Positions 13,497 through 61,332 of a stretch of 64,000 nucleotides of DNA are shown here, piece after piece. The position numbers were made by a program, and so were the translations under genes. This DNA comes from Hysterangium stoloniferum (taxonomy: Eukaryota; Basidiomycota; Agaricomycetes; Hysterangiales; Hysterangiaceae), in the NCBI GenBank assembly GCA_015178975.1, contig WHVD01000147.1, positions 1-64,000 on the forward strand, in the 5' to 3' direction. Numbering within the stretch: the stretch's first letter is position 1; each line of letters begins with the position of its first letter. The notes under the pieces were generated by a model. That model saw nothing but the letters and a program-made list of their open reading frames with translations. It was not told the DNA's origin and did no database searches.

Positions 13497-13812
13497 TGTA
13501 AGCCTGGCCACCTTACCACATACATAATCACCAACCTCTCCCATCAACCACTCATTGTTCTGCCACTTGATTGTTAAGTAGCGCCTTTGTGCCTGATCAT
13601 GCGGTTCTTTGTTCCCCCGCCAAATTCACCTTGACTACATAAAAACCCATATCCTATAGTGATAGAATCAATCTTCTCTTCAACCATTAATCCTTGCCCC
13701 ACTCTTCCCTAGGGAACCTCGCACTCACCTTGTATCCTACTGATATTTAAAAATAAAGAAAACTTAGTCCTGTCCATGTTGACCGAGCGAGGCTGATACC
13801 AACAGCCTTACA
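13497..13812 (+). repeat. Solo LTR, family L3
   Basis: Begins TGTAAGCCTGGCC and ends CAGCCTTACA (TG..CA; 6-bp inverted ends TGTAAG/CTTACA), 316 bp. It is flanked by an exact 5-bp duplication GCTAA (13492-13496 and 13813-13817). Related pieces lie at 4684-5053, 40493-40732 and 53505-53584. The parent internal region is not in the window. Confidence 0.85.
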
Positions 13813-34451: not shown

Positions 34452-34740
34452 GCCCCCTCCCATCCTCCACCCAGCACACACTCCCTCAGCCCCGATTCTA
34501 ACGCCTTGTCTACCTCCCTCCCCAAAAGCTGTACCGGTCCCTACCCCACTTAGGATGTCGAGGCCCCCTCCCATCCTCCACCCGGCACACACTCCCTCAG
34601 CCCAATGCGAACCTTCCCTGATTCCAGTCCCACCCCTTTCGCCAACGTCAAGGCCCCCTCCCATCCTCCTCCCAGCACACACTCCCTCAGCCCTGATTCT
34701 GGCGCCTCATCTCCCTCCCTCCCCAAAAGCTGTACCGGTC
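34452..34740 (+). repeat. Tandem triplication in the Pro-rich linker of gypsy A
   Basis: Three copies of CCCTCCCATCCTCC followed by CAGCACACACTCCCTCAGCC at about 34455, 34563 and 34654. A' has only one (59140-59185), so the expansion happened in A. Confidence 0.75.
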
Positions 34741-35662: not shown

Positions 35663-35668
35663 GGGGGG
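35663..35668 (+). other. Polypurine tract of gypsy A
   Basis: GGGGGG in CTGGGGGGCAC directly before the 3' LTR, at the expected place of the plus-strand primer. A' has the complementary GTGCCCCCC after its LTR (58163). Confidence 0.5.
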
Positions 35669-35671
35669 CAC

Positions 35672-36313
35672 TGTGAAGGGTATGCATATATGCATGATTG
35701 GACAGTGGAATAATATACATATTATATTACTTTATTATCTAGTTTCTATTCTTTTTCCTTAATTCTCTATATCTTTCGAGCATACTCGTATTTCTTAGTT
35801 TGAAGTCTTGTGTATACCTATGGGCGCTCTCGGTGCCAAAAGATAGACACTTTTTTACCCAGCAGACACCACCTCGTAACGACCCAGACATCGAATAGCG
35901 AGAGGTGTCAAGGGTAACGTCTCAGCTACTTATAAAAGTAGCAACTACTTGCGTACTAGTAATCTTTGGACTCGAACCGCGAAGGTCAAGTCCCACTTTC
36001 AAGTCTTTGCACTCATCAACACTCTAGTCGATTCGTGCTGCTATATCTCTACCTCTGATATTCAGTCTTTCGCTGATTATCTTTCTTACTTCTAGCTACA
36101 AGTTGTACCGTAAAGGTCAACTCTCCTTTTCTCCGGTCCTTATCGTCACGAGCAACTGTACAGTTGCTCTTGTGATGTGTAGTGCGTCTCTTTACTAGTA
36201 CTATCAGTCTAGTAATCTACAGTATTGTGCAGGACAGTCAATACTTAATAATAGTAGTTGAATAAATACTATTCCTTGTACATCGAGCAGTCAGAATCTA
36301 TCGACTCTTCACA
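35672..36313 (+). repeat. 3' LTR of gypsy A
   Basis: 642 bp, same ends as the 5' LTR, with scattered differences that are mostly transitions (for example GGGTGCTC to GGGCGCTC, GTTCGAAG to GTTTGAAG). Confidence 0.95.
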
Positions 36314-36433: not shown

Positions 36434-36858
36434 TGTTAGTAATCAAGTCTTCGCATAAACCGAAATATGGATCCGATGACGAGTATATGCACATATATGC
36501 GCATATATTGTAGTGCCGTTAAGGGGGGGAGTAACTCCTAATTACGAATTTCTCCTTAATGATGCAATTGACTAGAAACTTCGAGCATCAAAATTTCCCC
36601 TTTTCTATTCCCCTAATAACTCTCCTAAAATAATTAGAAAGTAAATAAAAAGTCGCGATATTTCACCATATACCTCAGTGAAGTTTACTCACTCACTCAC
36701 TGAGGTATATGCGCAATCATCTATTCTTATTCTATTACTTACGAAATGTCTTACAGCTTCGAATTTAGGTATTATAATATATAGTGAAGTTTACTCACTC
36801 ACTCACTGAGCTTCGAATTTAGACTCTACCCTTCCGAATTCTTGTCTTCTACTCAACA
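36434..36858 (+). repeat. 3' LTR of copia, with internal tandem duplication
   Basis: 425 bp against 304 bp for the 5' LTR. The surplus is a repeated stretch with GTGAAGTTTACTCACTCACT twice (near 36678 and 36783) and CTTCGAATTTAG twice. The order suggests duplication after, or at, insertion. Confidence 0.9.
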
Positions 36859-37147
36859 TTTCACGACAAATAAGAACAAGGCTCAGGGAAAGTGGAAATT
36901 AAACAATTTCATTCATGGGTGACTAAGAGGTGGCCGTTTTGAGCAGTTTGCCACATCGATTCCAAGCGCTTCTAAAGGTGTGGCGGCTCGCTTAACGCGA
37001 TCTAGGCTATATCAAGGTTCAGGGCGGCAGTCCTTTTCTAAGCCATCTGTGAACACAAGCGTCAATGTCCACGCACATGAGCAGTGAGTCTCAGTGGGTT
37101 GACATACTTTTACCTTCAAATCCTTCACTTATCCCCTTCGCCTTAGT

Positions 37148-38584
37148 GATGGTTACCTGGAGGCAGACCGTGGTCATTCTCAACTACCCAGGGAACTCAC
37201 CAACCCCCTCAATTTGTAAGATCCTTCCGCGTCGCCTGAGCTTATATTGAACTGTGCATTCAATTCCCTTTCACGACTTGACAGTGATACATTGGATGTT
37301 CATCACCCGATGAACCCCAGCTCGCCTCGTGTCTCAACGAGAAGTCGCCCTCACTTCCATCTCGCTGATGATTCTGATAGTGACCAGAGTCCGGCCCGAC
37401 GTTCATTCAGACGCCGGGAGGTAAGTGCTTATATGGATCATATACATGAAACGTCAGGCAATGTTTTCTAGATTATCCTCGCACTACCTGTAACCAACAC
37501 TCCTCGTTTGGTTAGGAATCCTGTCAAGTTACCATGGGCTTCCCTCGTTGAGAAAATTTCTCGCTACCATGGTAACTTGGCGCGATTCCTAACCAAACGA
37601 GGAGTGTTGGTTACAGGTAGTGCAAGGATAATCTAGAAAACGTTGCCTAACGCTTCCCTCGTTGAGAAAATTTCTCGCTATCAGGATCCACTGATGAAGT
37701 AAGTTCCAAATGCTATGACCATGTACATTGCGTATTGAACGTGAATGGTGTTAGGTATAAGCTCACTGACTCTGATCCTGATGTTGAAATCGCAGAGTGG
37801 AATGACATCTGCACCAAGTTGGAAACAATGGGAGCAATGTGTAAAGCCTCTCATTCTGACCCTAATCTCACATATGACGGGGAGACTGAAATGTGGGCAG
37901 TGGTTATATTAATCCAATAGCCTCAATAGCCTGACTTCCTTTTCTGATACAGTGCTAGAACTCCTCGTCACCTAACAAATCTCATTCACAATGATCACAT
38001 GGAGGTGAGTACCACTTCCATGTAACCCTGTGAACTTCGCTAGTGCCGAGGCGCTGGGTGCACTCTCCGGGACAGATACCTCTTTTGCTGGACAAACACC
38101 CTCGCCTCCCCTTGCACTAACCTTCCCGCAATCCGTGCTGTCAGAAACATTTGGCGGTTTCAAAATGCGGAATTTAAAATGCATCCCGCTCATCCAGGAG
38201 GACCTGAAACGTCAACAATGTTCATTTGGGCGTTCAAACTCACATATCCATACCATGCATCACTGGTTGGTTGGACATTTATTCAGACCTCCAAGAGACG
38301 GCAGGATAGACTTGTCTTTTGGGCAATTAGCCCATATTTATGAGTCACTATTACGGTGTCCGGAAAAAAATTGTCACCAGCAAGGTGGGTTTTTTTGGAA
38401 AGACAATTTCCAAGACCATATGAGGAAACATAGAGATGGGCTGTCACCCGGTCGGTTATTGGTGGACATTGAGAAGCGAGAGGCTGACGTACTACATTTG
38501 GTGCGCTCGCTTTCAGAGGAGGACGAACGGTCGTACATATGCTGGGAAGACCAGTTTATTATTCTCATGTTCACGTTATTATAG
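37148..38584 (+). pseudogene. Second copy of the C2H2-like gene, inactivated
   Basis: Homolog of the gene at 6398-7723 with the same exon order. Damage: TGA in exon 2 (CCCGATGAACC near 37308) if the frame used in copy 1 is right, an inverted duplication inside intron 2/exon 3 (37452-37680), and a stop plus 2-bp deletion at the start of the last exon (TCCATGTAACCCTGTG near 38020). The last exon is otherwise well kept from 38030 to 38584, including CPEKNCHQQGGFFW and DHMRKHRDG. Confidence 0.6.
37452..37680. repeat. Inverted duplication with repeated end (templated insertion)
   Basis: About 85 bp (37452-37536) reappears inverted at 37566-37651. The 28 bp CTTCCCTCGTTGAGAAAATT onward occurs both before (37539-37566) and after (37653-37680) the inverted arm. 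Copy 1 has only the single arrangement (6690-6820). The inverted arm keeps TTGGCGCGATTCC as in copy 1, while the left arm has changed to GAATCCTGTCAAG. Confidence 0.85.
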
Positions 38585-40492
38585 CTTGTTGATTATCCAT
38601 GAATAAATGTTGGTTTGGTATCATCATTGATCTACAGGACGCAAAGTAACGTTCTAATCGGAGATCACCATGTATTGACGTGGCAAACTTCACTTTCTGA
38701 AAACCAAAACCCCGTGCTTGCTGCGAAGAGATTCGATCTCACTTCCTTCTCTAGCGTAGAACCAACTATTATCCTCACAAATATCTAAAAGGGATTTTTG
38801 ATTTTGGAGCTGAGGCCGCCTAAATAATTCACGTCTACACGGATGATCCATATCAGATTATTTTCAAGCATTGCATTTAATGATCGTCCCCGATGAAACG
38901 TCGTTATTGTTCCGCGTCCTATACAACGCCGGACGCTTACTAGGTGATTGATTTTTTCGGTAGTTGGTCGTTCCAAGGTGATCTGGATGGGTAGGGGGTA
39001 CGAGTAGCCTACTTGAACATTATTCACCTTATTCAGGAAGCGTCAACTGATCTACGTCATACCCCCTGACTATTGTGCTATTCTCATGTGCCAGCAGCCT
39101 GTCCTAGTTCCTGTTCACGTGCATCACATCAATGGGAATTACCGTCGATCAAAGGAGGGCTCTCACAATTTTCTTCATTACTCCCAACGTAGAGGCGTAT
39201 GACAACTAGTTTCACACCCAAATAACTCGCCGCTCTATGGTGGGAGGGATAAAGCTACGAACGATTCAAGATAGAAAAAGATTCTTCCATCTGATCAGAG
39301 CGCGACAAATAATTTTGTAGATGACCATTTTCGTTGCTCGTGGCTGATACCCTGTTAAATGTTCCGAATATTGCCGGGACTTTGATGTATCCCGGGTTCC
39401 ACCATTAGCTGGTTGGCGGGAGTATTAACAACTCTCTGCGAATATGACTCCTGTTAGAATATATTATAGCTATGCATGTGTGCACAAATTGTTACACCCG
39501 TAACCAACCCTCTTTACCCTTTGACTTTCCCCATTTGGCGAGTAGATACTAAGTGGGTAGTTTCCATGTATGTATGCCTTTTTATGAAACAGAGGTACAT
39601 CGGAAAGTGTATTGCTTTCCCTTGGTATTCTTGTCAGCTTTGAGGTTTGGTTTTAACAGTTCCTACAGTCGCGTACGAAATTCAGACGACGACGATCAGG
39701 AGGTTGGAATCTTAATCAACAGCATTCACAGCGGAATATCTTTGATATACTTGTCTCGAGTTGAGCTGGATTTTCAAGTTCAGTAAATCCCCAATACGTG
39801 ACACCTATAACGTTCAACAGGATTCAGAGATGAAATCATGGAAAACCAAAAATGGGAAGCTGACCATCGCTCAAGCCGGGATTCTATTGGATCATGATTT
39901 CTCTACTCTGTTGTCAATCAGGGTGACTACCGCTAGGAGTGTCCCCCAGGAAGGTAAGAGATTGCGTCTGAGGTGAAAAGAGTTCCGTTATCCTAAATTG
40001 AGCCATGGAATATCGGAACTCGGGTTACTATCTTCTTTTCTCGACTTCGCCAGTGTGAAAGACGGTCATGCTGAAAACGGGAAAATGTCCACATCAAACG
40101 TTTGTGGCAAGAAAATGCACAGGATATGTACTTGTCAATGAAACACTTTATAAGACTGGTCGCCGTGAATATAATAATACATATAATGTTCAATTGTAGC
40201 GGCTGGAAGAGCCTTCACACACGAGAGTCCGGTTCCTTCGGGGGTCGAGAAGAGGTGAATGATTTTTGGATCCATCACCACCTAGGAAGTTAGAGTGAAT
40301 TGTACTGGCGGAAGTGGCTGCAGAATTGATTGTGAGGACACAGGGAGGCGGATTAGTTATACCGAGCCTTGGGGCGATATGACCAACGCATATAGTTGAA
40401 ATTTTCACCCTATTTGCCATCATTTCAAGTAGGTTCGCATATCGGATGTTATCGGAGGCTATCGCCCTGCGCGGATGGTAACCCTTCCCCGA

Positions 40493-40732
40493 TGTAAGGC
40501 TGTCGGTATCAGCCTCACTCGGTCAACACGGACAGGACTAAGTTTTCTTTATTTTAAAATATCAGTAGGATACAAGGCGAATGCGAGGTTCCCTAGGGAG
40601 GAGTGGGGAAAGGATTAATGGTTGAAGAGAAGATTGATTCTATCACTATAGGATATGGGTTTTTATGTAGTCAAGGTGAATGTGGCGGGAGAACAAAGAA
40701 CCGCATGATCAGGCACAAGGGGGCTGCTTAGC
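40493..40732 (-). repeat. LTR L3, right half (minus orientation)
   Basis: Begins TGTAAGGCTGTCGG (the reversed L3 end) after CCCGA (40488-40492) and follows the L3 sequence to GGGGGCTGCTTAGC. There it breaks off at the L3 position where the piece at 53505-53584 stops. Together the two pieces make one complete LTR. Confidence 0.85.
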
Positions 40733-43700
40733 ACCCTTATGCGACATAGCTGTATTCAATCAATAGCCTTAGCTATACGTAGCAGTTGAACTTCGAAGTG
40801 AGAGCTATGATGCTTCTCATCGTCTCCCTCAACAAAACAGATTTCTCTCTTTTCCAAGTCATGCCACTTGACACATAATACATTCTCCTCTTCCTATACT
40901 CACTATGCAACATCTATGTAATTTTCCGGAGTAGTTGCTCTTGGATGTTTATAAGCGGGTCTCTTTGCATGCAACTTATTTTGACCAATATCCCAATATC
41001 TACAAGATTGAGGTACCGTACCCCATCCTTAACGCCTTTTTTAGTAGCTATAGAGACGTGTACCGTGAAGCAGACGTCCATGATTGCTCCCATAGGATCG
41101 GATCGGATAAGATAGTACAAGAATTGTTGGAGAGTATGCGGCGTATCCCAGTTTCTGAACAGATGATGTTGACATGCGTTTACATTCAGGCCAGAGATAC
41201 GACAGATTGTACGCTCTGTGGTAATTACAAACTTGCCTCGACTGCTTGTGAAGCCCTACATGATCCTTCCTGCCAACACCACGTCACGTTGGCCCAAGAA
41301 TGATGTCGAGGATGTTTTGGGACGTTAAAGAGCAATATTGTCGTTCTGCGGATATGTCTGAACCTCTATCGAAAGGGACAAAGTGTTGGTCAACGGTGTG
41401 GATAGGGATGAGTTTTTGTTTTTGTTTCAGTCAAGCTCTACAGTAGTGGAGAAGGTAGGATCAAAGACTCACACATTCATCTCCCCCCCCCCCTCCCATA
41501 ACATCCGATCGAGATCTCAAACGTACTCGTCGGCCTCGATATCTTAACCCCCTCCCCCTTCTCATCGCCCTTTCTGCCTTCGGCCACAACGACACCTGCC
41601 CATTCGAAGGGAATCATGAAGCCCTCTCGGTGGAGGACAGTGTGGTGGGAGTCTTGGGGACTGTAGTGGTGGGAAGGGACGTATTTGTGGGTCAGGGTTA
41701 TAGTGTGTAAGAAAGGGAAGAGTGCGGGCTGTATTCTGTCGTGCCGACTGGCAACGCAAATTACCGTACAGGCGAATCACTCGGAGGAGGGATTAGAATG
41801 AAAAGTGAGTGGATGTAGTGTTGTAGTCACCCGTTGCACTGTAGTTGTAATCCGCGTCCTAAATCCTAAATGACGGCTCAATCAGTATCGTAGAAGGGAG
41901 AAAAAAAAAGAAAGAATAGAAGGATTGCTCACAATCAAATGATTCCCATCCCAAACCAATCTCGTCGGATACCCTCATTCCACACAACATCCCAGACCTC
42001 AAAAGATGCATATATGCATAGTTCCCGCTCTCGTAGGCTCCTCCGGCCCCAACACGCATTTCCGAAGCCGCGCGCCATCTGTTAGAATGTAAGACCTAAT
42101 ATTAAACTCAGTCTCGTATACACGTATGACGGACTAATGTAGAGTACCTAATATTAAACTAGAGTGTATAAGTATTTGTAAGTGACGGATTGAGGATAAA
42201 CCAACTCACCTCAGTCTCGTATACACGTATAACGGACTGAGGTGATACTACTATTGTCTCTAGTTTATATATTCTACCGCATATGTTACCAAGGCACCGT
42301 CAAAGTGATACCGGGCATCCATGCCCGAGGATTAAGGTTGGGTGATCTTAGGTCGATACGAAAAGTTTCGATGGTGTTTTCCAACACCATCGTCGTATAG
42401 AGTAGAGCTTTCTCGGCACAAAACATGGACAACAAAAGGCCACGAGAAACGAAAAATAATGGTGGTTGGTGGTTGGGGAGGGATTAGGTCCGTGCGTAGA
42501 GGGAGAGCTGGCATGAATAATGGACGCGTCGGGGATGGCTAGACGCCAAGGGTTGGGAGGAACAAAATTGGAGATGTTTACGAGGGATGAGGTCAGGAGC
42601 CCACTATGCTCCTATGCTCACCCACAAGCAGCGGGGGAGTATCCTGTGTATCCTGAAGAAGTCAGGGTTGTGGGTACCGGACGGAAGTGTGAAACCGGAC
42701 ATGGGAAGTAAAGAGAATAGGTCTTTGTTTAGCGGTGTAGGTTTCACCCTCAGCGAATGTAAGACAGTATTCAGGAGGATACGGGGCGGTTCATTCAGCG
42801 TCTTGGGACTGACGTGGATTGACAGTAAGGTAGCCTACGGGTAGAGTTGACGTTGGGCAGATCGACCTATAGGACAGGACACAATACACACATCCCAATC
42901 TCACTCTCTGTTTTCTAAAGATCACGTACACGGAGGCCATGGCAATCACTACCACCTACTGCATCACGAACTGCCCGCTTTTTCTCATTGCCATTCGATA
43001 ATGCATTCACCACCTGGATTGAATTCCTAGAGTGCTTAGACGACAGGCTTTGTGACTGACGCAGCCGCATGAATCTTTGTAGCCCACACATTTCCAAATA
43101 ATAATTTGAATACACCACCAACTTGCATTTAATTTTACGACTTAGCTCGTATTAATATCCAGCAGTTCTGTTTGCCTTTACCCTTGGCGATAATAAATAG
43201 ATCGTCGACAAACACCAGAACATATCGTGTCACATTCGCCTCCCTGTGCGTTAGACTAATGGTTTGGGGTTCATCATGAAAAATGCAACAGTCGTCCCAG
43301 CATACTCACGTTAGTACAGCATTATGTATGCCAAATTTTCCCAGTACTTAGATAGACGGACGTCTTGCGCTGAGGCTCGCTCCGAAGACGAATTACCAGT
43401 TCGTGATGTAATTACTCGCTCTACGTATTATCTTATCCTTACATACTTCATTCGACATCCATAGTCACTGGCACGAACCGCTCCCCCAAGGCTGAAGTCG
43501 GTCCCGATCTTCTAGTCTGCCTGGCTCGACTCAGAAGTCCCATCTATCAAATTCTCATAGTAGCTGCTAGTTGCACAAGCTGAAATCATGATGTCATGCC
43601 GCTTTTTAAAGTTAAACCCGAATTGTTACTGCTGGATAGTCGCGCATTTATATGAAATACATTTCTTTTAGCATTAATGTATATTTAAATATAAGCATAA

Positions 43701-44861
43701 ATTCAAAAGGGATAAAATTGAAAATTACTTAGAACTTTGCCGCGCAGACGACTCGGACCTGAACAGACTGGTCACGATATACATATCGAGCATACCCTCG
43801 CATAACGTCAAACCATGGGATCGATATGTCTGTTCGTGATGCACTCTCACCTAATGTCCGTGACGTCTGAGTAGTATAAAGGCTCCTAGAGGGTACGTAC
43901 TAGCTTTTCCACTTTTCTGATGTGTCGTAAAAGTCCCAGATGACCATGGAGCTGTCCTACAGCTCTTGTGGTGCGGGAGGCACCTTAAATCTCACACGTC
44001 ATGAAGGCATGCCACTCAGTGGCAAGGCCTGTAGCAGTATGGACATTCCGCGTGCAAAGGAATGGCTCACTTTCGGCTGCTGTCTGAAGTTTTCCGTGAC
44101 ATTAAAACGATAGGGACAACAGATGAAAGAGTTGTCTGGCGGTGAAATACTGTAAGTCCGCTTTAGACAGAGGGGATGACCAGCGGATGAAAAACAATAC
44201 GATGGCACAAGAGGGACTCGAGGACTGGCATGATATATCTCATTGAGCGTCAGGTGAAAAGAAGTTTTCTTCCTTCCCGTAATAAGTATATGTATGTGAA
44301 GAGCATGATATACCTTCAACAGCTAGACAAAGTCCTGTTTACCGCGAAATACCATTCCACCAGAAATAACAATTGAAGCAAAAGTTGATGTCAAAGTGCA
44401 AATGAAACTACAGTGGCGAGCGACTTCCGGTTCACTTCAAATAAAAGCATAGATATGACAATTAATGAGGAATTACCCAGTGTGTAGTAGGTGTAGATAT
44501 AGGGGAAGTAGCAGATACATGAGGGAAATCAAACCTTTGCGAGAAACATCGCGTTGCAACGCCTTCCGAATGTGGTGGGGCTTAGTCAGCGTGGGAGGGC
44601 ACAACGTTCCATTTGACTTCCTCTGAACAATGAATTACGCCGCTACTCTTATCCCGGTTGCGGAAACTGAGATCTCAAAATCTAAGCTGTATACCAGGAA
44701 TTGCACTGTTTATACAATTCTTAGCCTTGACTGTGACATCAAGTTTCAGCCCACAATGCGCGTCATCCTAGTGTCAAACGTCCGCCCGGGGCATACAACA
44801 CCGTAATGAAGACGGGAATTCCAGCCTTGTCCAACTCGGACTGATATCTGCAAAGCTGTAT
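40733..44861. other. Long stretch without a supported gene
   Basis: The longest frame, 40935-41303 (122 residues, with CTLCGNYKLAS), has no family I recognise. A near-palindrome CCTCAGTC..GACTGAGG lies at 42209-42242, with a related sequence near 42109, within what may be a small LTR-like repeat starting TGTTAGAATGTAAG near 42081. A perfect 10-bp stem CGATGGTGTT/AACACCATCG sits near 42369-42392. A TATAAAGG near 43877 precedes a 55-codon frame at 43946. None of these is strong enough to annotate as a gene. Confidence 0.35.
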
Positions 44862-44969
44862 GGTTGGGTAGGGGCAGAGCGTTAGCTCTCCGCGTAAGCG
44901 TGGGAAGACTCGCCGCTCACCCACAAAGGCTGCCTACAAACGCGGCGAGGCTACGCCGCCGACCCAACC
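44862..44969 (-). ncRNA. Cloverleaf-like fold directly after the DIRS recombinase stop
   Basis: On the minus strand it begins right after the TAG at 44970-44972. Outer stem: GGTTGGGT/ACCCAACC (44962-44969 with 44862-44869). Inside are three hairpins: GCGGCG/CGCCGC (44942-44959), GTGGG/CCCAC (44900-44924) and AGAGC/GCTCT (44876-44889, loop of four). It is a four-way junction by base pairing, GC-rich compared with its surroundings. Role unknown; it could be an RNA signal of the element. Confidence 0.5.
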
Positions 44970-46219
44970 CTAGGCAGCTGCTGTTCTGGCTGAAAGATTC
45001 CTCAAATGATGCGATGCGATTTGCTCAAAGGCCCTAATGTACGTTTGATATGCTAGTGACTTCCATCTGCCTGCTAACCTTACTATTTCGAAATCGACTC
45101 CCTGTGCCAGGAAAAGGAAGCACCGCCAATACGAAATGAGTGGCCGAAGGATGTTCCCCATCCTTTTTGAGTAAGTATTGAATTTATCCACTCAAGTGCT
45201 GCTGTTCTGACTACTGGTCTGATATCACCCTTGTTGCCTCGCCAGCAGAACAGTGGGTTGTCTGGCCCTGCTGGTACAACTCTCGATAAGTTGATCAGGG
45301 CTTTGATTGGGCATGTTCCTTGTTGCTCTGTCAGGAATACTGACTGTGTGCTACCAGCTTTGGCTGTTTTTGATGCAGGTAAGTCCAAGCGTGCGTAGCA
45401 TTTTCCATTGTCGTCCCAACTAATCAGGGCATCCTTTCGTTTCAGGTGCTTTCTGGTGTCAAAATGCGATCTAGACGGTACAGTGACTTCTCCAAAACAC
45501 ATCAGCCCCCAAAAGGGACACATTGATACAGCCCAAATGCAGGTGTAAAAGGGGTCCTCTAGGTTCAAGGACGTCTTTAATGTGAACAGCATACTCAACT
45601 TCACTGGGGGCCTTGGAGGCCATCTACGTGCACTACCTTGTAGGTTATCTAACCCCCGCAGTGACCATTCTACTCTTGTGCACTCATCATCTGAAAGTGG
45701 CGGTGGCCAGCCTTGGGCTATGTGCCAGGCCCTAATTGCTGACAGGTACTTTCACGTTACACTGACTGATATTGTTTCAAAGGCCATCCCAGCAGCTAGC
45801 TCCTCGCCCAGCAATGCTGGGTCTGCTGCTGCCCATAATGCAAAGGAGTGTAAGACTGGGAAGGATGCTGGGAGCCTGTCTGATTCAGCCACGGAGAAAA
45901 TATTGCAGAAGATGTGAAATTTGCACAGGCCAGCTCCATAACCATTTGCCTCCCTAAGTGAAGCTTCTGAGGCTAAGGATGCAATTGCCTGTAAGACTGG
46001 ATGTTGCATTGTGGATGGCGGTGGGATGTTGACCCCTTTCCATTTGAACAGTCTCTCGCCTGCCTTACATGGTGGTCTGAGTGCTGATGGAATTACCTGC
46101 AACTGGCTCGGCGCTGGCATTCTGTTAAGAACTGAAAACTGACTAATGTCAGTGGCCGACAGGGACCGATCGGAAGGACTTGGCTTCAGCTTATGTGCTG
46201 CGCCCTTGCAAATATCCAT
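44970..46219 (-). pseudogene. DIRS tyrosine recombinase
   Basis: N-terminal part in 45752-46219 (PVLQAIASLASEASLREANG, GYGAGLCKFHIFC), then YLSAIRAWHIAQGWPPPL and FWGLMCFGEVTVPSRSHFD, GHSFRIGGASF (the H-x2-R box), and GRWKSLAYQTYIRAFEQIAS with the Tyr nucleophile, ending at 44970. The first catalytic Arg, expected in the LMRFGEV-type box, is Cys here (complement of 45497-45499), a C-to-T change. Frame changes lie near 45750, 45600 and 45130. The enzyme would insert circular cDNA without a target duplication. Confidence 0.85.
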
Positions 46220-46748
46220 AGGGTGTCCTTAAATTTCGGGCGGGCGAAGACTAATCCTAATGAGTACCTTTCGGCGTGATACCGATTGGAATCGAAGGAC
46301 AAGTCGAGCGTCAGGCCAAGGGGTCGGGGCCGGGAGTGGGCGAGTGCACACGAAGGCGGATGGGGGGATTCTTAGTATGAGACTGATACAGGTGTATGAG
46401 GGTATTCTGAGTCGATATTCTGATTGCCTAGTGACTACAACTACAGCGGGTTCATATACAAGTAACAGGCGTCTGGAAAATACTAATGGGGAGAAGGGCG
46501 GAACACGGTATTAACAATAAGCTTGACTAGGAACGGGAAGTTTATGATTAGTTCGGAGGCTGATGATAACCGAGAGTGGGATTACGATAAAAGGAAATAG
46601 TTCAAGGACTACAAATATAGATAGACATATGCGAAACATAAGATTGAACAGATCAACATAATAAAGGGGACGTATCAAAGTTTGACCAGACAATACGAGT
46701 TATTTTGACGTGGGCGTAAACGGAGTTTGATCTTCGCGAAAACATTCG

Positions 46749-48330
46749 TCAGCTTCGGGGCCGATGGTTTCCGAGATGGTGACTTGAAACGTTGACAAGT
46801 GGTGATAACCTCAGGACCGATAGGGTTGCGACACGGTCGTAACACATTCGTGATGGAGGGGCAAATGGTGCTGATGTCAATGCCAGTGCTACAATGATTG
46901 GATCTGATGCACTAGGTGCCCAGGAATGTCTACTCTGGCCTGCGTGTCGGCCTTCGGAAAACCTTTGAGGAATTTGCCAATATGTCCTCATGAGAGGGCA
47001 TCTGCGACATTGTCCCTTGATGGTATGTATATCGCCTTTAACTGTATTCGGTTTGTGACTAACAATTTTTAAATTTCTTTTAGGATCTTGTTTGTTTCCT
47101 TGCTGTGTGATTGGCCTTTGTTTAAAACTGTGACCACCACTGTTGTCTGACCGCACCAAAAAATATTGAATGTGCCGGGTTCCACTAGCACATCCAATCC
47201 TGTTGTAATGCCATCTGCAGACCCATTTCGACTGTGACTGCTTCTGCCCAGCCAATGTCACACTGGCAATATGGGCCAACCCTGAAGCCAGGTGCCCACT
47301 TCCATGCTGCCCACTGGTTGTCTACCACCACGCTTAACCTGAAGGATATGCTGGCATCTCCCCACCATCCCATGTCCACCACCTCTGATGATGTGATTGG
47401 CAATTCGTTTGGTAGGTGGTGAATTATATACTGAATCCACGATATATCAGCCTGGACCACTGCACCTGGAGGGAATGCTGCTCTTTGTGAATTGAAGTTG
47501 TTCGCAAAGGAGGCAATAGATTGTAAGAAAGGCCTTATCCATGGAAAAATAGATGAGATGTGTACTAATTTCCCATGTAGCCTGTCCGCTGCCTTCCTTG
47601 AGAAACATGCATCTTCTGCTGCCCAGCATTTGATCAAGTCCAGCACTGCGTCCAACTTCTCCTTCGGCACTGATACCATTTTGGTGTCCAGGTTCCATGA
47701 AAAACCTATGTATTTCTGGACTGATGAAAAGGATCTTGTTTTGCTTTGACTCCATGGCACACCAAACTGTGCCATCAGGGCGATGAAATCGTCCTCTGTC
47801 CATGTTTGTCCTGGGAGGTGCACAGCCAGGAAATCATCTACCCATTTGAGCAGGCATCCAAAGCCGGCTCTCCGATATAATGCTATTAGCATGTCCGCTA
47901 TGCTTCCGAATACCCTGGCACTCGAAGCCAAACCGAATGCCACCGCACGGTCAACATACACCAGGCCCTTCCAGTAGATGCAACAGGCATTCTGCTGGCC
48001 CGGTTTCACTGGCATCATTTGGTATGCTGCTGAGATGTCGAAAGTAGCTGCTACATAACCTTCTGAAAGTGAGAGGATCAATGCTGTGGCATCTGTGAAG
48101 GTGCCCCATTCTGTTGGGAAGTCGCTGGAGTTTATGCGGCTGCTTATGGAAGAGTGAGTTGGGTCCCTTTGGGGGAACGATAGGTCTTGTATTAAGCGGT
48201 AAGTACTTGAATTCGGTTTTGGTATTAGCCCCAGGGGCGATGTTTGGAAAGGTCCAATAATCTGCTCCAGCTCCTCTGGCGTGAAGCCTCTGGAATAGCG
48301 GCCTATTTTCTGTTTGTTTGTAATGTAATT
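46749..48330 (-). pseudogene. DIRS reverse transcriptase and RNase H
   Basis: LGLIPKPNSSTYRLIQDLSF near 48210-48240, FDISAAYQMMPVKPGQQNAC, AVAFGLASSARVFGSIADML, and the active site LLKWVDDFLAVHLPG near 47840. RNase H with MGWWGDASISF near 47360 and a C-terminal YIPSRDNVADALS near 47010-47040, followed by a stop in place of Arg. The main frame is open for 298 residues (47185-48081). Confidence 0.9.
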
Positions 48331-48527
48331 GTCTATAAAGTCTGTGTCTATTAATGCTGATCTGTGGTTCCCGAAAAATTACTGTGTGTGATATGAGATC
48401 CTTTACTCTGATGTTGAATCCTTCCATTAAACTAGTTATAACGTGCTGCCAGTCCTGTTGAATGCCATATTTACTTAATGTATGCGCCACTTTGATGGGG
48501 TCGAGTGGCGTTGTGACCCATCTTGGG

Positions 48528-49229
48528 TCAGAGCTGTCTGCAGGCACCCGCTCTGTGGTTGTCCTCGAAGCAGATGCTGCAGGCATGAGTGTTGGTGCAG
48601 CTGTCACCCCACTTGCACTGTGATCCAAGAGCCCAGTTGAAGCAGAATTGTTTTCCATTGGGGGCAGCAAGGGCATGCTTGTTTCTGGCACCGTGTGCAA
48701 TTGGGGCTGCTGTCTTTCCTGCTGTTGTGAGCTTTGACTTGCATTCAGCCGGAAAGTGTCCTTGTGTTCCACACCAAAAACAATGCAATGAATCCCTATC
48801 TGTGCATGGCCTCTTAGCTGATGATGGGATGTGTTGGGGCAGCACTGCTGCTGACCATGTGCGCTTAGGTGGTGTGATTGGGGGGCCACTCGCCTTCGAT
48901 GCCTGTAGTGCTGCCCTTGTCGCAATGATTGTTAGCATATCTGTGTCCAGGCAACCCAGGTCATGAGCTAAGTTGCGGGCAGCTGCTTTGCACTGCTGGA
49001 TGTCATAATCCATGGTGACCTCCCAGCTGTGTGATTTCGCAATGGTGGTCACAATGGAATGGTGCGCTATGAGTGCCTCGGCCCTAGTGTCGCCACCGTG
49101 TGTCCTGGTATGATCCACAGCAGCTGCTGCCACTGCTAGCCAGTTGATTATGCTGATACTTTTCTTGTTCTCACGCTCCAGCCCTTTGGCCACAATACTA
49201 CCTGTCGGAGAGAAAGTGAATTCCTCCAT
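48528..49229 (-). CDS. DIRS gag-like zinc-finger ORF
   Basis: Begins MEEFTFSPTGSIVAKGLERE; 233 residues. It has a zinc knuckle CFWCGTQGHFPAEC near residues 148-161, then FCFNWALGSQCKWGDSCTNT, a CCCH-type finger, and HACSICFEDNH. The combination of a knuckle with a CCCH finger in front of the reverse transcriptase fits fungal DIRS ORF1. RNA binding is the expected role. The start is the first ATG after the R2 boundary. Confidence 0.75.
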   Translation of the reverse strand: MEEFTFSPTGSIVAKGLERENKKSISIINWLAVAAAAVDHTRTHGGDTRAEALIAHHSIVTTIAKSHSWEVTMDYDIQQCKAAARNLAHDLGCLDTDMLTIIATRAALQASKASGPPITPPKRTWSAAVLPQHIPSSAKRPCTDRDSLHCFWCGTQGHFPAECKSKLTTAGKTAAPIAHGARNKHALAAPNGKQFCFNWALGSQCKWGDSCTNTHACSICFEDNHRAGACRQL

Positions 49230-49326
49230 ACCTCTTTCAGCTTTCCACCGAGCTTTGGTTGTAAGGGCTACATATTAGTCACGTGATGTCACCATCAAAT
49301 CCCTCGAGGTCAAATTTGGCCTTACA

Positions 49327-50515
49327 TTGGCATCAGTCCAGACGTTGATAGGACCAAAGTGTATTCCTCGAGAATGGCAAGTACAATACACAATGATGAC
49401 GGTAAGTAAAAACGATGATCTGAAAAAGATACTATGCGCGTCTGTGATAATGGTTGTAAGCCACCAGCTTATAGCACCGGGAAAACCCCTCTCTTCCAAA
49501 GATTTTAGGATCTGTAGTAGAGCCCCATCTTATATAAACTTCAATAATCTCTATTGGATCCTTATAATATGTAAAATTGGTTAAGGATCCAAAAGGCAGG
49601 TGGAGGGTGATCAGGTGTACATAAAATTCTTTAAGCATCAACCATATCATTAAATATAAAATCCTTCAATTTTGTATAGTCCAATAGGATTCTGTATCCC
49701 TTTATCTTTCCTGTGACTTTCAGAGGATGATCCAATTAAAAATCCACAAAACTCCCGGATGTAGTTTCAGGATTTAACATCACATAGAACATGTGTGTAA
49801 TCAATCAATTTAAAATCCCATTCACATCCCTGACTTTGATGGAATTACAAAATGATATAGAATCTGTTAGATGGTCCACAATTGAGTTAAACTCTCCTTT
49901 GTTCCAATATAAACTCCCTTTGTTCTCCACATGTTGGAACAAAGGAGAGTTTAACTCAATTGTGGACCATCTAACAGATTCTATATCATTTTGTAATTCC
50001 ATCAAAGTCAGGGATGTGAATGGGATTTTAAATTGATTGATTACACACATGTTCTATGTGATGTTAAATCCTGAAACTACATCCGGGAGTTTTGTGGATT
50101 TTTAATTGGATCATCCTCTGACAAGTCACAGGAAAGATAAAGGGATACAGAATCCTATTGGACTATACAAAATTGAAGGAGTTTATATTTAATGATATGG
50201 TTGATGCTTAAAGAATTTTATGTACACCTGATCACCCTCCACCTGCCTTTTGGATCCTTAACCAATTTTAAATATTATAAGGGTCCAATAGAGATTATTG
50301 GAGTTTATATAAGATAGGGCTTTACTACAGATCCTAAAATCTTTTGGAGACAGGGGTTTTCCCGGTGTAGCACGTGGTACTGTGACCTCATTATGTGTAT
50401 ACAACGGGAGGGTTATAGTTGTCCAATTCTGTGTGAGCAAGACTGCAGGTAGGCCAGACGTACCCGCCTGACTCGCCGTCCTCAGTCCTCCTTTCCAAAA
50501 TTCCCCATTCCTTAA
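49327..50515 (+). repeat. Dispersed repeat R2, copy b (split by foldback element)
   Basis: Matches 10313-10720 on both sides of the 893-bp insertion at 49475. The copy lacks an internal stretch present at 10515-10620 and ends near CCCCATTCC, before the AFG2-like fragment could continue. Confidence 0.7.
49475..50367. mobile_element. 893-bp foldback MITE with CACCGGG ends
   Basis: Two nearly identical inverted arms of about 433 bp (49475-49907, 49934-50367) around a 26-bp centre. Ends CACCGGGAAAACCCCT and AGGGGTTTTCCCGGTG; flanks TAG (49472-49474, 50368-50370). The empty site exists at about 10460. CAC.. ends with a 3-bp duplication suggest the CACTA superfamily, inferred. The two mirror frames of 81 residues (49791-50036, 49805-50050) only reflect the palindrome. 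Confidence 0.85.
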
Positions 50516-50529
50516 CATGTGATTATTCA

Positions 50530-51990
50530 CAGATGATCATAATCATTGACAATTAAAACATTTATTCTAGAACTCGGCACTAATGTGACCAGGCCGTTTA
50601 AACCGTGTTCTGTACGACGGACCGCCGCACAGGAGCAGTCATGAAGATATTCCTCGTAGTCGGGCGACTAAAATGGCTTGTTGGATTTGCGAGGACTTGG
50701 GGATCTGATGCATCATCGCCCGTAGGGCTGCTTAGCTAGTTGTGTTTCGCTCGTATATTCTGGCCCTTGCTGCTGTGTCGCAGACTGACGGATGCTCTGC
50801 CGCGGAAATTGCAGCATTGTGTCAGGACTCGGCGTTATTTAAGATGCATCGCGATATGGATTCACCATTTGCCAGTTTTCACTTTTTCAGATGTTTTATT
50901 TTACATTTCTGAAATGACTTGTATATAGGTGACTCGCAGTGATTTTATCGCTGCTGCTCAGAATGTGCGGCGACAGTTAACACTGGAGTCATTTTGCGTC
51001 GTGGCGTGAGTGTACCGGCCATTGGAGTGCACGGATCGATGTGGAGTTTTCGTCATGTCGCTGATCAAATCTCCGAGAAGGTAAATGTAGCGTGGCAGAT
51101 ATTAGATATTACTATTGATCGAGGCTACCGTAGATACTCCTTTGAGAATGTCGACGTAACAATAGTGGTTTGTTGATCTATATACTTTCCCAGCTGGCTT
51201 GCACTTTGAGGGTCCGGTATTTGTTATATCATGCTTTATTTCAATCAAAGCCACTAGCGAATTGTGAGGTTTAGTCTGCTGTAGAGAAAGATTGAAGCGA
51301 ATCTTGAGTGGCACCTTGGATTGTGTAGTAGTTTCATTTGTTAACTAATCGGGGACTGTATAGCTGCTTCAGCTTTATACTTAACCCATATGGCAACTCG
51401 GCAAGTACTAGGCCAGAGTACTAGTAAATTTAAGTGCTGTCATGAGGATGGCGAAGACATCCCATGTCAGCGAGCGATTCTGTCCTAGACAGCTGAAGAG
51501 CATGGGTAACATTCCCAGGTGTGTTGCAGATAGAATGTGATAGTCGCGAACAGCGGTCATCTATGGGATTACAACATTACGCGTTCTAAAATCTCAGCCG
51601 TATTAGCTTATGGTGCCGTTGTAAGAGCCGCATTCAAGGCCAGTCTCAACCACTTTCGTTGAGGTATGGCATGGCAAAAAGTGGGACTAGGGACCCTTGA
51701 CGATACTCTGCGTAAATATCGTCTAGGAATATTTTTATTTTTATTTTTACCAGTTGATCGTACTTCCTGGTCGACATACCACTGAAAGTATTTACCTTTA
51801 AGCCTTCAGTGTTTCTCGTTCGCCGAACGATCCCTTCTGACCAGCCACGACTTGCTCAAGGGAGGAATACGATCCCTATGGCCTAAGGTTTGTTAGTTCC
51901 TGTCATATTCTACACGCATGGCTGATTCTGTGAAAAGGGAGAATTTGTGCCATAGCTTTTCAAGAGATATATTCATGATGTTTCGTACTA
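50530..51990. other. Coding-like but unidentified segment
   Basis: Plus-strand pieces such as LALAAVSQTDGCSAAEIAAL (near 50770) and DFIAAAQNVRRQLTLESFC (near 50940-51000) look like exons of a decayed gene but lack a recognisable domain. The remainder to 51990 shows no clear feature. Confidence 0.25.
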
Positions 51991-51994
51991 TGTT

Positions 51995-52785
51995 TCGGCG
52001 CCCTATAATGGACTACTTGCAATGGACAACTAGTGTAATCCCGTCGTCAATTGGGATCACTGGTGGTCACACAAGTTGACAGGACCACGGTGTATTGTCC
52101 AGAACAAGAACAGGATACAGGCAAGTGCAGCGTACGGCAAGATCTAAGGTCCTGAAAACTTCCCGGCTACTTATACGGTGCAACACGGTGATTATGTAAT
52201 CACGTGTTGATTGAAACGAGAATGTAAACTAAAGGGTCCGTGCGTAAGACTGGGGGGACCAGGATTACAACTAGTGTTGTACGGCCTACCTGTGGATGTA
52301 AGCGCACGCGCTGGCGTAGCTCGACTGTGTGCACCGTTCTCGTCATTTTATACACATTAATTCGGTCCCTAATAACAGAAAGGAGTTTTGAAACAATTAC
52401 ATTGGTTATTTATTGCCCTTTTACTCTTTAAATGCCACTAAGCTCGTGGGATGGTTCTATTAGGCCTGTGTGGATAATCCACCTCGGTAGGTTCCATCCT
52501 AGATATGATCTGTATCCTGTTGTAGTATTGAATCCATTGACCTACCATCGGATGAACATAAATTGGCATCAGAATGTGCTCCGCAAACATCAGGAGGCGT
52601 AAAATGTGTTTCATGGTGCCGTTCTTTGGCATTGTCCAAAATGTCCCGCTAATTCATGGTGACTTTAGCTCGCTATTATCCATATTACTCCTTACTGTAC
52701 CCTAGTAAGAGGGAGGTATCAGTGTAATGAATTTGCGTTGTACTTGTTCTAGCTCTTGTGCTAAATTCTACTTCAGATAGAGTGC
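51995..52785 (+). repeat. Dispersed repeat R1, copy b
   Basis: Plus-strand counterpart of the minus-strand copy at 2768-3310. A 236-bp insertion lies at 52034-52269. The alignment resumes at TGGATGTAAGCGC. Limits approximate. Confidence 0.6.
52034..52269. mobile_element. 236-bp MITE in repeat R1
   Basis: Absent from copy a. Ends TGTAATCC and GGATTACA (8-bp inverted) with ACTAG flanks (52029-52033, 52270-52274). Because the flanks extend the repeat, it can also be read as a 9-bp duplication CAACTAGTG around TAATCC..GGATTA, as in Mutator-like elements. A GTGATTATGTAATCAC palindrome lies inside near 52189. Confidence 0.65.
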
Positions 52786-53249
52786 AAACCACGCCACTAC
52801 ACGCCCGGCCGGCAGTCAACAATCAAGTAAATACATGATTTTCATTGGGAATCTCATTGGTTTTTCAGGGCTCTCAATCTGTAAAGATCGACGAGGAAAA
52901 TATTTAAAAGAGAATGAACTTGCACGTTAGAAACTTAGAGAACCTCGGAGATTGGTGGAGTAGTCGTTGGAGTCCCATTAAAATGAGATTATTTCAGCAT
53001 GCATTATTTCAGCATGCATTATTTCAGTAATGGGATATTTCATCTTTCCGGAAAAATATTTCATTCGTGTATGGTTATCTGGTGTTTTTATAGCAAAACA
53101 ATCCACAAAGTCCTTGTTCTCTGAGTGTGTTGAGATCCACTCCCGCAACGCACTGCGGTTTAGAAGTGTCAGGGAAGACAGGCTAAGGCACTGGATCCAC
53201 CAATAACATATCTGGTTTGTTGGTAACAAAGAAAATTTCTTGTTGTCTG

Positions 53250-53504
53250 ATTTTGTTAATATCCACTCCAATAACATATTGTGGTTTGGTGGGGTAGCAC
53301 AGTGCAGCTAAGGTCCTGATGCTGCCAGTAACATAAGTGTTACAGTATTTTGTCCAGTATATGCCTATGACAGACACAACTAAATGCGTTCTGCTATCCG
53401 ATTGCTCAAGAGTTGGTCTCAAACATGGACCATTTGTATTCGTCGACTTTGATCTTGCCCTCCAATGGGTACAAGGAGCACCGTCGTTCCTGATGGGGAT
53501 CGGG
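53250..53504 (-). repeat. Segmental duplication copy 2, part 3 (inverted)
   Basis: The minus strand continues copy 2 where 40492 stopped: it matches 9676-9930 of copy 1 (CCCATCAGGAACGACGGTGC against CCTACCAGGAGCGACGATGC). It begins with CCCGA, the target duplication of the split LTR. Confidence 0.8.
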
Positions 53505-53584
53505 TGTAAGCCTGGCCACCTTACCATATACGTAATCACCAACCTCTCCCATCAACCACTCATTGATCCGCCACTTGATTGTAA
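53505..53584 (+). repeat. LTR L3, left half (plus orientation)
   Basis: TGTAAGCCTGGCCACCTTAC to CCACTTGATTGT, the first 80 bp of L3. The neighbour TCGGG (53500-53504) is the complement of the CCCGA before the other half at 40493. Confidence 0.85.
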
Positions 53585-54181
53585 CAGCCTTTTATACCCC
53601 CAAGAGTCGGAGCCGCCACAATTCCTATTGATGACTATTATTGGCAGCTGATAAGGCAAAACAAAGCTTCGGCAAAGGCACCGAAAACTCAGGAGAATAA
53701 TCATCATATTTGATATTTTTGGAAATTGTTAGGAAATACAAAACAAAACAAAACAAAAGGCTGAAAGACTGCTTTCCAACTTCATGTGACGTCCATCAAC
53801 CAGTCCTAGTGTCACAATATCACCCAGTAAAAAGAAAATGGCAGGTAGAGCATCAGTGCAATAAGCAGAGGCGATCCTAGCGTGACACAGCGGCGGTCTG
53901 TCGGAACATAGTCCGCCAAAATGAGAAATCATGCGCAAGAGCTACATAAGTATTGAGTATGACATCCGAACATAATAAGGAAGTTCCAAAAGTTATAAAT
54001 AAAGTTGGATGTGCCTTGAAAAGAAAAGTATGTCTTTGTCTCTGTCCGTGTTTGGTGAACGGACCCCCAGTGGAAGCGAATCCGGGGGCCACAGGCTCCA
54101 TTGCACAAAGAATGCTGATGGGGACATGAGTGAGCCCCAACAGCATGCCAAACTAGTAGTAAATACATGAAAACGACGTAC
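53585..54181. other. No gene recognised
   Basis: Contains an AAAACAAAAC microsatellite near 53737-53757; otherwise unassigned. Confidence 0.35.
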
Positions 54182-54370
54182 TTTGCACATCCATTCCCGG
54201 TGATGGAGAGGGTCGCTGCACCGTCACTGTTTGTGCCACTAGTGAGTTTCATCATTGATCCAGACTTCAGAGCCTCGTGGATCACCCCAGAGTGTGGTCG
54301 CGCCGCCTCTGCCACCGCTTGCGTCCGAGAATCTTCAGGACGAACCCCAACCCATTGCACCAACTCCGAG
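54182..54370 (-). pseudogene. Coding-like exon of an unknown gene
   Basis: A 63-codon open segment between an acceptor CCTTGCGCAG and a donor GTACGTCG. It reads ELVQWVGVRPEDSRTQAVAE, then HSGVIHEALKSGSMMKLTSG and SDGAATLSITGNGCAK. The codon-like composition and splice signals suggest a real exon. I do not recognise the family, and neighbouring exons were not found. Confidence 0.35.
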
Positions 54371-54434
54371 CCTGCGCAAGGCTATACCGGTGTGCCGGTA
54401 ACGAAAAAGGGTGGGAGGAGGCGGAAATAGAGGA

Positions 54435-55070
54435 GTTCTCTGTTCATTCCAGCTTTCTCTTCTCTTTTTTCGTCTTTGAGGATATAGTAAGCCCCTCTCT
54501 GCCATCACAACTCCCAGCTACGTCGTTAACATGAATTACACAGCTTGGTGTATAAAACGTCTGAACTCAGATAGTTTATGATCCCGAGTTGCGAGGCGGT
54601 ACGGGCCATGATGAGGATGTGCCACTGGATGTGCAAGTGTAAGCCTTGATTCCACTCTTCCCACACATTTTGTTGATTATGTGCCTTGCTGGCTGCTTTC
54701 TCCCAGACGTTCTGGATGCATGGAGTGTTGTGAAAAGAATAACGGTGGAGGAATCCGTGATGACTGGTGTATGTACAGTATTATTTCTTTATATCATTGT
54801 CTCTAACGCCGCTTATTGTTACAGACCAGAAATGATTCCAGGACAACGACAGTTCAAATTGTTCACATCCGGCAATATTTGCAAGAAAATTGGGCCGAGT
54901 TCCAAAAGTAACAATAGACAAATCACCCAAAAATGTAGGTTTATTGGGCTCTCCTTATCGTGTGTGATGCGATACTAACACTCCTGTAGTCCAATGTATT
55001 TGAGGAATTCAGGATGGCTGATTGTTATGATGCTAACCTCCCTGTCAAATTCTTTGGTGTTGACATGACC
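54435..55070 (+). pseudogene. Decayed multi-exon gene, unidentified
   Basis: Exon-like pieces with good splice signals: FLFSFFVFEDI (to 54486), IVYDPELRGGTGHDEDVPLD (54560-54630) after an intron with a GTTAAC branch-like motif, DVLDAWSVVKRITVEESVMT (54695-54765), TVQIVHIRQYLQENWAEFQ (54835-54905), and a last intron ending TACTAACACTCCTGTAG before NVFEEFRMADCYDANLPVKF (54990-55060). Phases of neighbouring exons do not all agree, so it is probably broken. No domain recognised. Confidence 0.35.
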
Positions 55071-55561
55071 TGATTGGCGTTCTTTGCACAATTAGTCAGT
55101 GAGCGTCTTCACCACATCTTTTAGTGCTCTTACGTTATACATAGGGTGTCGACATCCTTCTACCAGTCAGAACGGATAATAAGTCCTTGCAGCGATAACA
55201 GTGTGAGTTGTTGGTCACTCAACTCACTTTCACAAACTCTTGTTTATACTTAGCCGTTAGCCATTGTGTAACGAACTTATTTGCCATTCGATCTCATTCC
55301 TCTATCAGGCCCGGATACTATACTCTAGGATTATTTTGTGAGAGAAGCTATCGTATTTTATTCCGTCCGTTATTGACCTTCGTACAGACTATCTGGACCC
55401 AACTGACTTCATTACTATTGCAGTTTGTACCTCAAAAAACTGACAATGTATACTAGACGGTTGCAGGAGCCCGTGCTATAACGGCGCGGTAGACATTCCT
55501 GCACCATTAGTTGTAAGTATTTAAATTTGTCTACCAAAGCTGCTTGTTCCGATGTTTCCAG

Positions 55562-56290
55562 ATTTCTCAGCAGCTCTTAGGTCCCCTTCTCGGAAATGGC
55601 AGAAATAGTCTAGTTCAAGTTGTGGCATTGTTAAAGAGTCTATTTAACCAGACGAAAATTCTCCATCAGTTATGTGGGTGCAACCTAAGAGACCAATTGC
55701 AAAATCTAGTCAGTCAAGGGGAATCCCTTGCGGCCAAATTACAAGTGCGATTACTGCAGCTACCAAGTCAACTGCAATTTATTAAATATGAAATCGACTT
55801 GATCAGCTAGTAAATTCTGTGAAACTTGTTGTGGAACAATTAGAAGCTGAATTTCAAAGGGACTTCCCTCAGGAAGGAATTTGTGTGGGCCTCAGTGACC
55901 TCTGGAACCTCCGGGGTGTATTGTCCTTGATAGCACATGAAGAGCAATTTGTTATAAATCTTTCGCTCTTCCAGCTACAGAGTGGGGTGACAGTTTTCGA
56001 GAGACTTGCGAGGCATCTTATTAATTTCTCTTGCAGGTTTGCCAATCTAGCCCGATGAATGCGGAACATGACTGGGGGCGGTATTCAGCAACCAGCGGAC
56101 ATATTGAAGGAAGTGAATTCAATGTAGAAATTAAGGATAGGGATTTGACTTCTTGTCTCTTGGGTTGTTTCCCATTTGCAAATGAACAATTCTTGGATAT
56201 CATCAGGCTACCTGTATATTTCAGAAGCCGACAACTGAAGAGCTGATTGGATGCAAGGCAGAGATTGCTCAGAAGATTACTGATGGAAAA
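55562..56290 (+). pseudogene. Decayed multi-exon gene, unidentified
   Basis: After an acceptor TGTTTCCAG: ISQQLLGPLLGNGRNSLVQV to KYEIDLIS, then a frameshift near 55808 and VEQLEAEFQRDFPQEGICVG to NLSLFQLQSGV. A possible intron ends CTCTTGCAG at 56035, followed by MNAEHDWGRYSATSGHIEGS and ELIGCKAEIAQKITDGKLRN near 56250. Helical, leucine-rich, no known motif. It may belong with the pieces at 54435-55070. Confidence 0.3.
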
Positions 56291-56399
56291 TTAAGAAATC
56301 TGTTCACAAACAACGGTCAGATTGTTAGAAAACACTGTAGGCGCTCCATAATCACACATGGCCGAATAAGCAGTGGGTTGGGGGGGGAGGCAGGGAAGT

Positions 56400-56750
56400 A
56401 GTGATTGGCAAGGCCCAGCCTTAGGCCATGGGCCAGTTGAGCAGGGCCCTGAAAAGCCCAAGCCAAGCCTAACTGAGTACTACTTAGGCCATCCACTCTG
56501 GGCCCGGCCTGGGATATTGTAAACCCAAGCCAGGCCACCACATCAGTAACATGGTATTGGCACCTGGATGGTCATGGACGCCCCATGAGCGCTGGAGGTG
56601 TGGGAGGAGGTCACCCATTCTGGCAGCGTCATGGAGTGTCTGGTGGAATGCCTTGGATGTCTTGGATTATGCTGGATGACGCTGGATGATACTGCCTCCT
56701 GTGTCATCCACATCCTCCCATGTCATCCATAGACTTCCAGCGTCATCCAC
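56400..56750. repeat. GGCC-rich and TGGATG-rich repeats
   Basis: 56405-56540 has repeated AGGCCCAGCC/AGGCC(A/T) words with inverted matches; 56560-56755 has repeated GGATG/CATCC words able to pair across about 100 bp. Low-complexity repeat, class unknown. Confidence 0.45.
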
Positions 56751-61298: not shown

Positions 61299-61332
61299 TG
61301 CAAGGGTGGTACCATAAATCTTACAGACTTCC

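What the first reader, a model, noticed from the sequence alone, without database searches (positions are those of the whole stretch)
40488..53584. One solo LTR split in two by a roughly 12.85-kb inversion
The L3 LTR half at 40493-40732 (minus) and the half at 53505-53584 (plus) are complementary: one stops at the L3 position where the other starts. Both outer neighbours are the same 5-bp duplication (CCCGA at 40488-40492; its complement TCGGG at 53500-53504). The sequence beyond each half continues the same segmental duplication (9675 and 9676 of copy 1). Re-inverting 40733-53584 would restore a normal solo LTR in an intact duplication. One breakpoint thus lies inside an LTR, with GT/TAA microhomology.
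Basis: partly seen in the sequence, partly recalled or inferred. Interest (0 to 1): 0.75.

Follow-up and report, generated by a model that had tools for sequence, protein, structure and literature searches.

The report
Nested insertions, then a small inversion
In a genome that is probably fungal, a mobile-DNA relic looks as if a chromosome flip had cut it in two, but a piece of other DNA had most likely landed inside it first, and the flip probably happened deeper within that piece.

Summary
Two complementary pieces of one 316-bp L3 LTR (40493-40730 minus; 53505-53582 plus) lie in inverted relation, each beside the same 5-bp duplication (CCCGA), and the flanking segmental duplication continues from one half to the other. 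A paralog on contig C256 shows the uninterrupted site.

The interpretation needs correcting. The sequences just inside the broken ends (40731-44819 and 53583-54032) are themselves two inverted-relative pieces of one unit, E, contiguous at C54:173.5-178.3 kb; across the break region E is also continuous in three other close copies. So about 4.8 kb of E sits inside the LTR, and that insertion split the LTR. E in turn meets a LINE-like element (G, 44820-49275) on one side and element J (54033-54173) on the other: dup(LTR(E(G...J))). The junctions that need a rearrangement are 49275/49276 and 54173/54174, giving an inverted block of about 4.9 kb (at most about 9.4 kb), not 12.85 kb.

A rival without any inversion (a palindromic locus whose two arms each kept a different half) is not excluded, and assembly error could not be tested. 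The structure is ordinary nested transposon turnover; interest is low.

The parts
36858..40492 (+). segmental duplication copy 2, outer part (matches w6101-9679, with a short flipped piece near 37.6 kb)
   Evidence: uninterrupted paralog in C256
40488..40492 (+). target site duplication CCCGA of the LTR, A side
40493..40730 (-). L3 solo LTR, position 79-316 (piece A)
40731..44819 (+). insert E, left piece (matches C54:173511-177627)
44820..49275 (-). LINE-like element G, fixed (3') end at 44820, cut off at 49275; itself carries an LTR-like 722-bp insert at 46123-46844
49275..49276 (.). left rearrangement junction (G interior / other sequence; 49276-49308 is unassigned)
   Evidence: 5 of 5 fetched G copies continue past this point
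49309..50517 (+). duplication piece (matches w10299-10716), interrupted by a fold-back element at 49475-50367
50518..53235 (+). block X; 50518-51539 and 52603-53235 are contiguous in C256, 51540-52602 is extra in the window
53236..53504 (-). segmental duplication copy 2, inner part (matches w9676-9941)
53500..53504 (-). target site duplication, B side (TCGGG = complement of CCCGA)
53505..53582 (+). L3 solo LTR, position 1-78 (piece B)
53583..54032 (-). insert E, right piece (matches C54:178330-177884)
54033..54173 (+). element J, terminus at 54033, cut off at 54173
54173..54174 (.). right rearrangement junction (J interior / H interior)
   Evidence: 6 of 6 fetched H copies continue outward past 54174; 3 of 3 J copies printed continue past 54173
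54174..56540 (+). repeat H (several copies to about 55450, one copy on C511 to 56540)
13497..13812 (+). intact L3 LTR copy used as reference, flanked by GCTAA on both sides

Best explanation
Nested insertions followed by one small inversion. (1) A 316-bp L3 LTR inserted in the minus orientation at CCCGA in one copy of a segmental duplication and remained as a solo LTR (shown). (2) A 4.8-kb fragment E was inserted inside this LTR between LTR position 78 and 79, without a target duplication and with about 1 bp of overlap at each end, as in end-joining capture of a DNA fragment (presence and clean split shown; mechanism inferred). (3) A LINE-like element G and an element J inserted into E, with their termini at E 177627 and E 177884 (termini shown). 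(4) A break between G and J inside E, and a second break beyond the duplication, were rejoined with inversion of about 4.9 kb (49276-54173). The end of G, the end of J and 256 bp of E were lost (junctions and loss shown; a single inversion inferred). The LTR halves face opposite ways because piece B and the right end of E rode in the inverted block.
For: The E pieces are collinear with one contiguous stretch at C54:173508-178330 (93.7-96.7% identity). E is continuous across both the break and the claimed right breakpoint in 4 of 4 close copies (C54-far, C46, C62, C79), and 3 of 3 fetched distant copies also cross the right one. The missing 256 bp is absent from the window and occurs on C54 only in the far copy (19 of 19 candidates scored). 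C256:7398-8286 matches w52603-53504 and runs straight into C256:8281-10800 = w40493-37985, the empty and uninverted site. Eight places, the query's own included, cross that site in one match; window copy 2 is the one split there (11 matches). The window junctions at 49275 and 54173 cut through the interiors of G (5 of 5 copies), H (6 of 6) and J (3 of 3).
Against: The duplication piece at 49309-50517 and block X have the same orientation relative to 36858-40492 as in copy 1, C62 and C256-left. A single inversion explains that only if the locus was already palindromic and one arm had been lost. The duplication next to piece A (last 300 bp) resembles copy 1 (283/298 vs 266/299 to C256-right), while that next to piece B resembles C256-right (249/268 vs 231/268 to copy 1). 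This switch at the LTR is strong (p = 2.5e-5), but an equally strong one lies within the outer arm (p = 2.9e-7); sites are linked and the bins were picked after seeing the counts, so neither p decides. E carries no target duplication. Only one other copy of E's left 430 bp or so is known. No non-inverted allele with LTR and E was found, and no reads were available.
Confidence: 0.6

Rival explanations
1. Palindrome without inversion. Block X was flanked by two inverted duplication arms. The LTR with E came to lie in both arms (copied from arm to arm by gene conversion). The left arm then lost its inner part (G sits at the deletion) and the right arm lost its outer part (J/H junction), leaving complementary halves.
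For: C256 shows arm-X-inverted arm, arms 91.4% identical over 2.36 kb. Duplication 10299-10716 and X stand in the window in the orientation expected without any inversion. The duplication next to A resembles copy 1 and that next to B resembles C256-right.
Against: Needs conversion of a 5-kb insert plus two independent deletions that by chance leave no overlap and only a 256-bp gap. To the right of the window pieces, up to 84 kb on the contig, no second LTR-A and no E-left were found except a 218-bp, 71% match at C54:71380-71587. The affinity switch is matched by another inside the outer arm.
Confidence: 0.2
2. One reading: an inversion of 40733-53584 with one breakpoint inside the LTR.
For: The LTR split is clean, with no base lost, so undoing this inversion would join the two LTR pieces without gap or overlap.
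Against: It needs E to have existed beforehand in a permuted order joined exactly at the second breakpoint. No fetched E copy has that joint (only the far copy holds the left end), and 7 of 7 fetched copies continue past the right end.
Confidence: 0.08
3. Assembly error: two loci joined wrongly in a repeat-rich contig of a partly haplotype-resolved assembly.
For: Most of the region matches repeats elsewhere; pieces of short contigs C256 and C283 are 99.7-99.8% identical to parts of the window, as haplotigs would be.
Against: Three nested layers (duplication, LTR with its 5-bp duplication, E) are complementary across the same interval, which a random misjoin would not give.
Confidence: 0.07

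Closest known systems
Nested transposon insertions with solo LTRs (recalled as common in plant and fungal genomes)
   Same: TG...CA LTR with a 5-bp target duplication, later interrupted by other sequence
   Different: The interrupting piece E is a fragment without a target duplication, not an intact element
Inversions associated with segmental duplications, e.g. 2Rj of Anopheles gambiae (PMC1952172; only title and start of abstract seen in the listing)
   Same: An inversion in a region of segmental duplications
   Different: Here it is about 5 kb and the junctions lie in transposon interiors without long homology
Transposon-induced inversions in maize (PMC8225341; only title and start of abstract seen in the listing)
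   Same: Inversion junctions at transposable elements
   Different: The junctions here are not at element ends: G, J and H are each cut in their interior

Membership tests
LTR retrotransposon LTR (L3) | TG...CA termini and a constant-length target duplication | tested here: met
   TGTAAG...CTTACA; exact 5-bp duplications in 5 of 7 fetched copies and at w13497 (GCTAA)
LTR retrotransposon LTR (L3) | two direct LTRs around an internal region with a polypurine tract | tested here: met
   C124: 5' LTR preceded by ACCGA, 3' LTR preceded by a purine tract and followed by ACCGA. Two other same-strand pairs (C35, C146) share no sequence beyond the LTR in the 3 kb compared and are not shown to be full elements
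LTR retrotransposon LTR (L3) | gag/pol of its own | not tested
   about 1.5 kb of the C124 interior was held and only its ORFs were listed; no domain search was run on it
Inversion with a breakpoint inside the LTR | sequences beyond the two LTR ends are unrelated pre-inversion neighbours | tested here: not met
   both belong to one collinear unit E
Non-LTR retrotransposon (G) | reverse transcriptase/RNase H coding and a fixed 3' end with variable 5' truncation | tested here: inconclusive
   3 of 6 homologs searched give weak RVT_3 hits below the curated cut-off, 3 give none; six ORF pieces of G itself give no Pfam family; fixed end at 44820 in window and L029; internal cut at 49275 in the window

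The most novel reading that the evidence does not exclude
The locus records an aborted copying event between the two arms of a natural palindrome: half of a nested LTR-E insertion was copied into the other arm and the rest was lost, producing a false inversion signature with no inversion.
Probability: 0.15. Interest if true: 0.45.

Novelty: new member of a known kind. Interest (0 to 1): 0.2.

Why it matters
Mainly a caution. Complementary repeat halves in inverted order do not place the inversion breakpoint at the repeat; the innermost collinear layer must be found first. Once it is, the inversion shrinks from 12.85 kb to about 4.9 kb and moves out of the LTR. As an example of transposon-driven turnover in a duplicated, partly palindromic region it is ordinary.

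Tried and rejected
Rejected: 53585 as a transposon terminus. Hits begin there only because the window changes sequence there; 7 of 7 fetched E copies run on past it. For 40733 only one other copy exists, so a natural end cannot be excluded there. Rejected: 49275 as the natural end of G (5 of 5 copies continue) and 54174 as the end of H (6 of 6 continue). Not borne out: C35 and C146 same-strand LTR pairs as full elements.

Led nowhere: Pfam on ten ORFs of the 38-54 kb region (0 families); homologs of the 431-aa ORF in the far E copy (none among the 7,987 candidates scored); solved structures for one G homolog (none); paper searches (0 papers; listings only, nothing used)., meant to test whether the genome is fungal (chitin synthase family against a plant light-harvesting family), did not complete. 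Organism therefore not settled: the species-named hits to the G ORF in the list shown are Agaricomycetes (class recalled), whereas the best named hit to the window's copia-type ORF is a plant, with further plants and Agaricomycetes below. Fungal is an inference. Arm-specific variants cannot decide between inversion and palindrome, because the outer arm is itself mosaic.

Full report
Setting. The window is G000:C54:1-64000 in an unnamed 111.1-Mb, 554-contig genome. Species-named hits to one transposon ORF are Agaricomycetes, while those to a copia-type ORF are plants and Agaricomycetes, the best being a plant. A fungus is inferred; a direct test did not complete. The window holds many repeats.

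Observation. Alignment to eight other copies (seven fetched, one in the window) shows a clean split between LTR position 78 and 79. L3 is an LTR: 5 of 7 fetched copies carry exact 5-bp duplications and a sixth has one mismatch, and a two-LTR element on C124 has ACCGA outside both LTRs and a purine-rich tract before the second.

The target site. A query across the uninterrupted site gave 11 matches: 8 places cross it (the query's own included; 78-100% identity), 2 are the two halves of window copy 2, and 1 does not reach it. In C256 the sequence corresponding to w52603-53504 runs directly into that corresponding to w40493-37985. So both LTR halves fit one insertion site.

What lies just inside the halves. 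Genome searches with w40733-41332 and w53585-54184 both lead to one region of the same contig. C54:173508-177631 matches w40730-44823 in order, with two internal length differences, and C54:177884-178330 matches w54032-53584. Thus the window holds the two ends of one unit E, inverted relative to each other exactly like the LTR halves. E is continuous across the stretch missing from the window, 177628-177883, in 4 of 4 close copies (C54-far, C46, C79, and C62 with a short gap near 177873); more distant copies at 71-75% are also listed. The missing stretch is not in the window and is found on C54 only in the far copy. Seven of seven fetched E copies continue past 178330, so the right end is not a natural terminus. 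For the left end only the far copy is available, so a natural terminus at 173511 cannot be excluded; this does not alter the nesting.

What lies inside E. At 44820 begins G. Five of eleven fetched G copies were examined: one (L029) starts at this base with a flank unlike the window's, and four start with a tandem repeat of the same end. G's ORF has 277 homologs at E <= 0.001; 3 of 6 searched give weak RNase H-like hits below the cut-off, so LINE-like is a likely label, not a tested one. In the window G stops at 49275 although 5 of 5 copies fetched there continue. On the other side E stops at 54032, where J begins with its natural terminus (4 of 4 copies have different outside flanks). J is cut at 54173, where H is also cut (6 of 6 H copies continue outward). 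The sequence at 49309-50517 is again a duplication piece (w10299-10716) interrupted by a fold-back element. So the nesting is dup(LTR(E(G...J))), and the junctions that need a rearrangement are 49275/49276 and 54173/54174.

Explanation. The simplest series is LTR insertion, capture of fragment E in the LTR, insertion of G and J in E, and an inversion of about 4.9 kb (4,898 bp) whose break inside E fell between G and J, with loss of 256 bp of E and the ends of G and J. The upper bound is 9,354 bp if G came later.

Open rival. C256 has the plan arm - X - inverted arm, and in the window X and the adjacent duplication piece stand in the orientation expected with no inversion at all. If LTR and E had been in both arms, two complementary deletions would give the same picture. 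Sequence affinity of the two duplication parts points that way near the LTR. Over the whole outer part, however, copy 2 is about equally like copy 1 (93.2%) and C256-right (94.1%), with sharp switches elsewhere. I put 0.2 on this and 0.6 on the inversion. That the LTR itself was split by E rather than by an inversion breakpoint holds in both, at about 0.8.

Limits. Reads, other isolates and the second haplotype were not available. Hit lists are capped at the best candidates (for the LTR 40 of 367 scored; for G 40 of 2096). The class of E is unknown; the one protein search on it found nothing among the candidates scored. Four paper searches were made; only listings and starts of abstracts were seen, and no paper was opened. 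General statements on nested transposons and end-joining are from my own knowledge.

Noticed in passing
w7577-12652 and C256:1-5079: 99.8% identical over 5.08 kb, while the rest of the C256 stretch fetched is mostly 91-94% like the window; C283 carries a third near-identical copy (99.7% over 962 bp). Probable haplotigs or very recent duplication.
   Followed up: partly
49475-50367: Fold-back element of 893 bp that matches itself on both strands and has copies matching on both strands elsewhere; ends CACCGGG...CCCGGTG, flanked by TAG on both sides.
   Followed up: partly
46123-46844: 722-bp insert in G with TG...CA ends and CATTC on both sides, LTR-like.
   Followed up: no
L026:754-2046 (C54:178754-180046): 431-aa ORF in the far E copy over a tandem pair of about 510-bp units; no homolog among the 7,987 candidates scored.
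   Followed up: partly
29425-36313 and 57523-63215: Large inverted pair, 89-93% identical in its long pieces, with integrase-type domains in both, on either side of the region studied.
   Followed up: no
14973-18922: Ty1/copia-type gag, integrase and reverse transcriptase ORFs in order.
   Followed up: no
26401-28548: 716-aa ORF with reverse transcriptase (RVT_1) and a partial RNase H-like domain.
   Followed up: no
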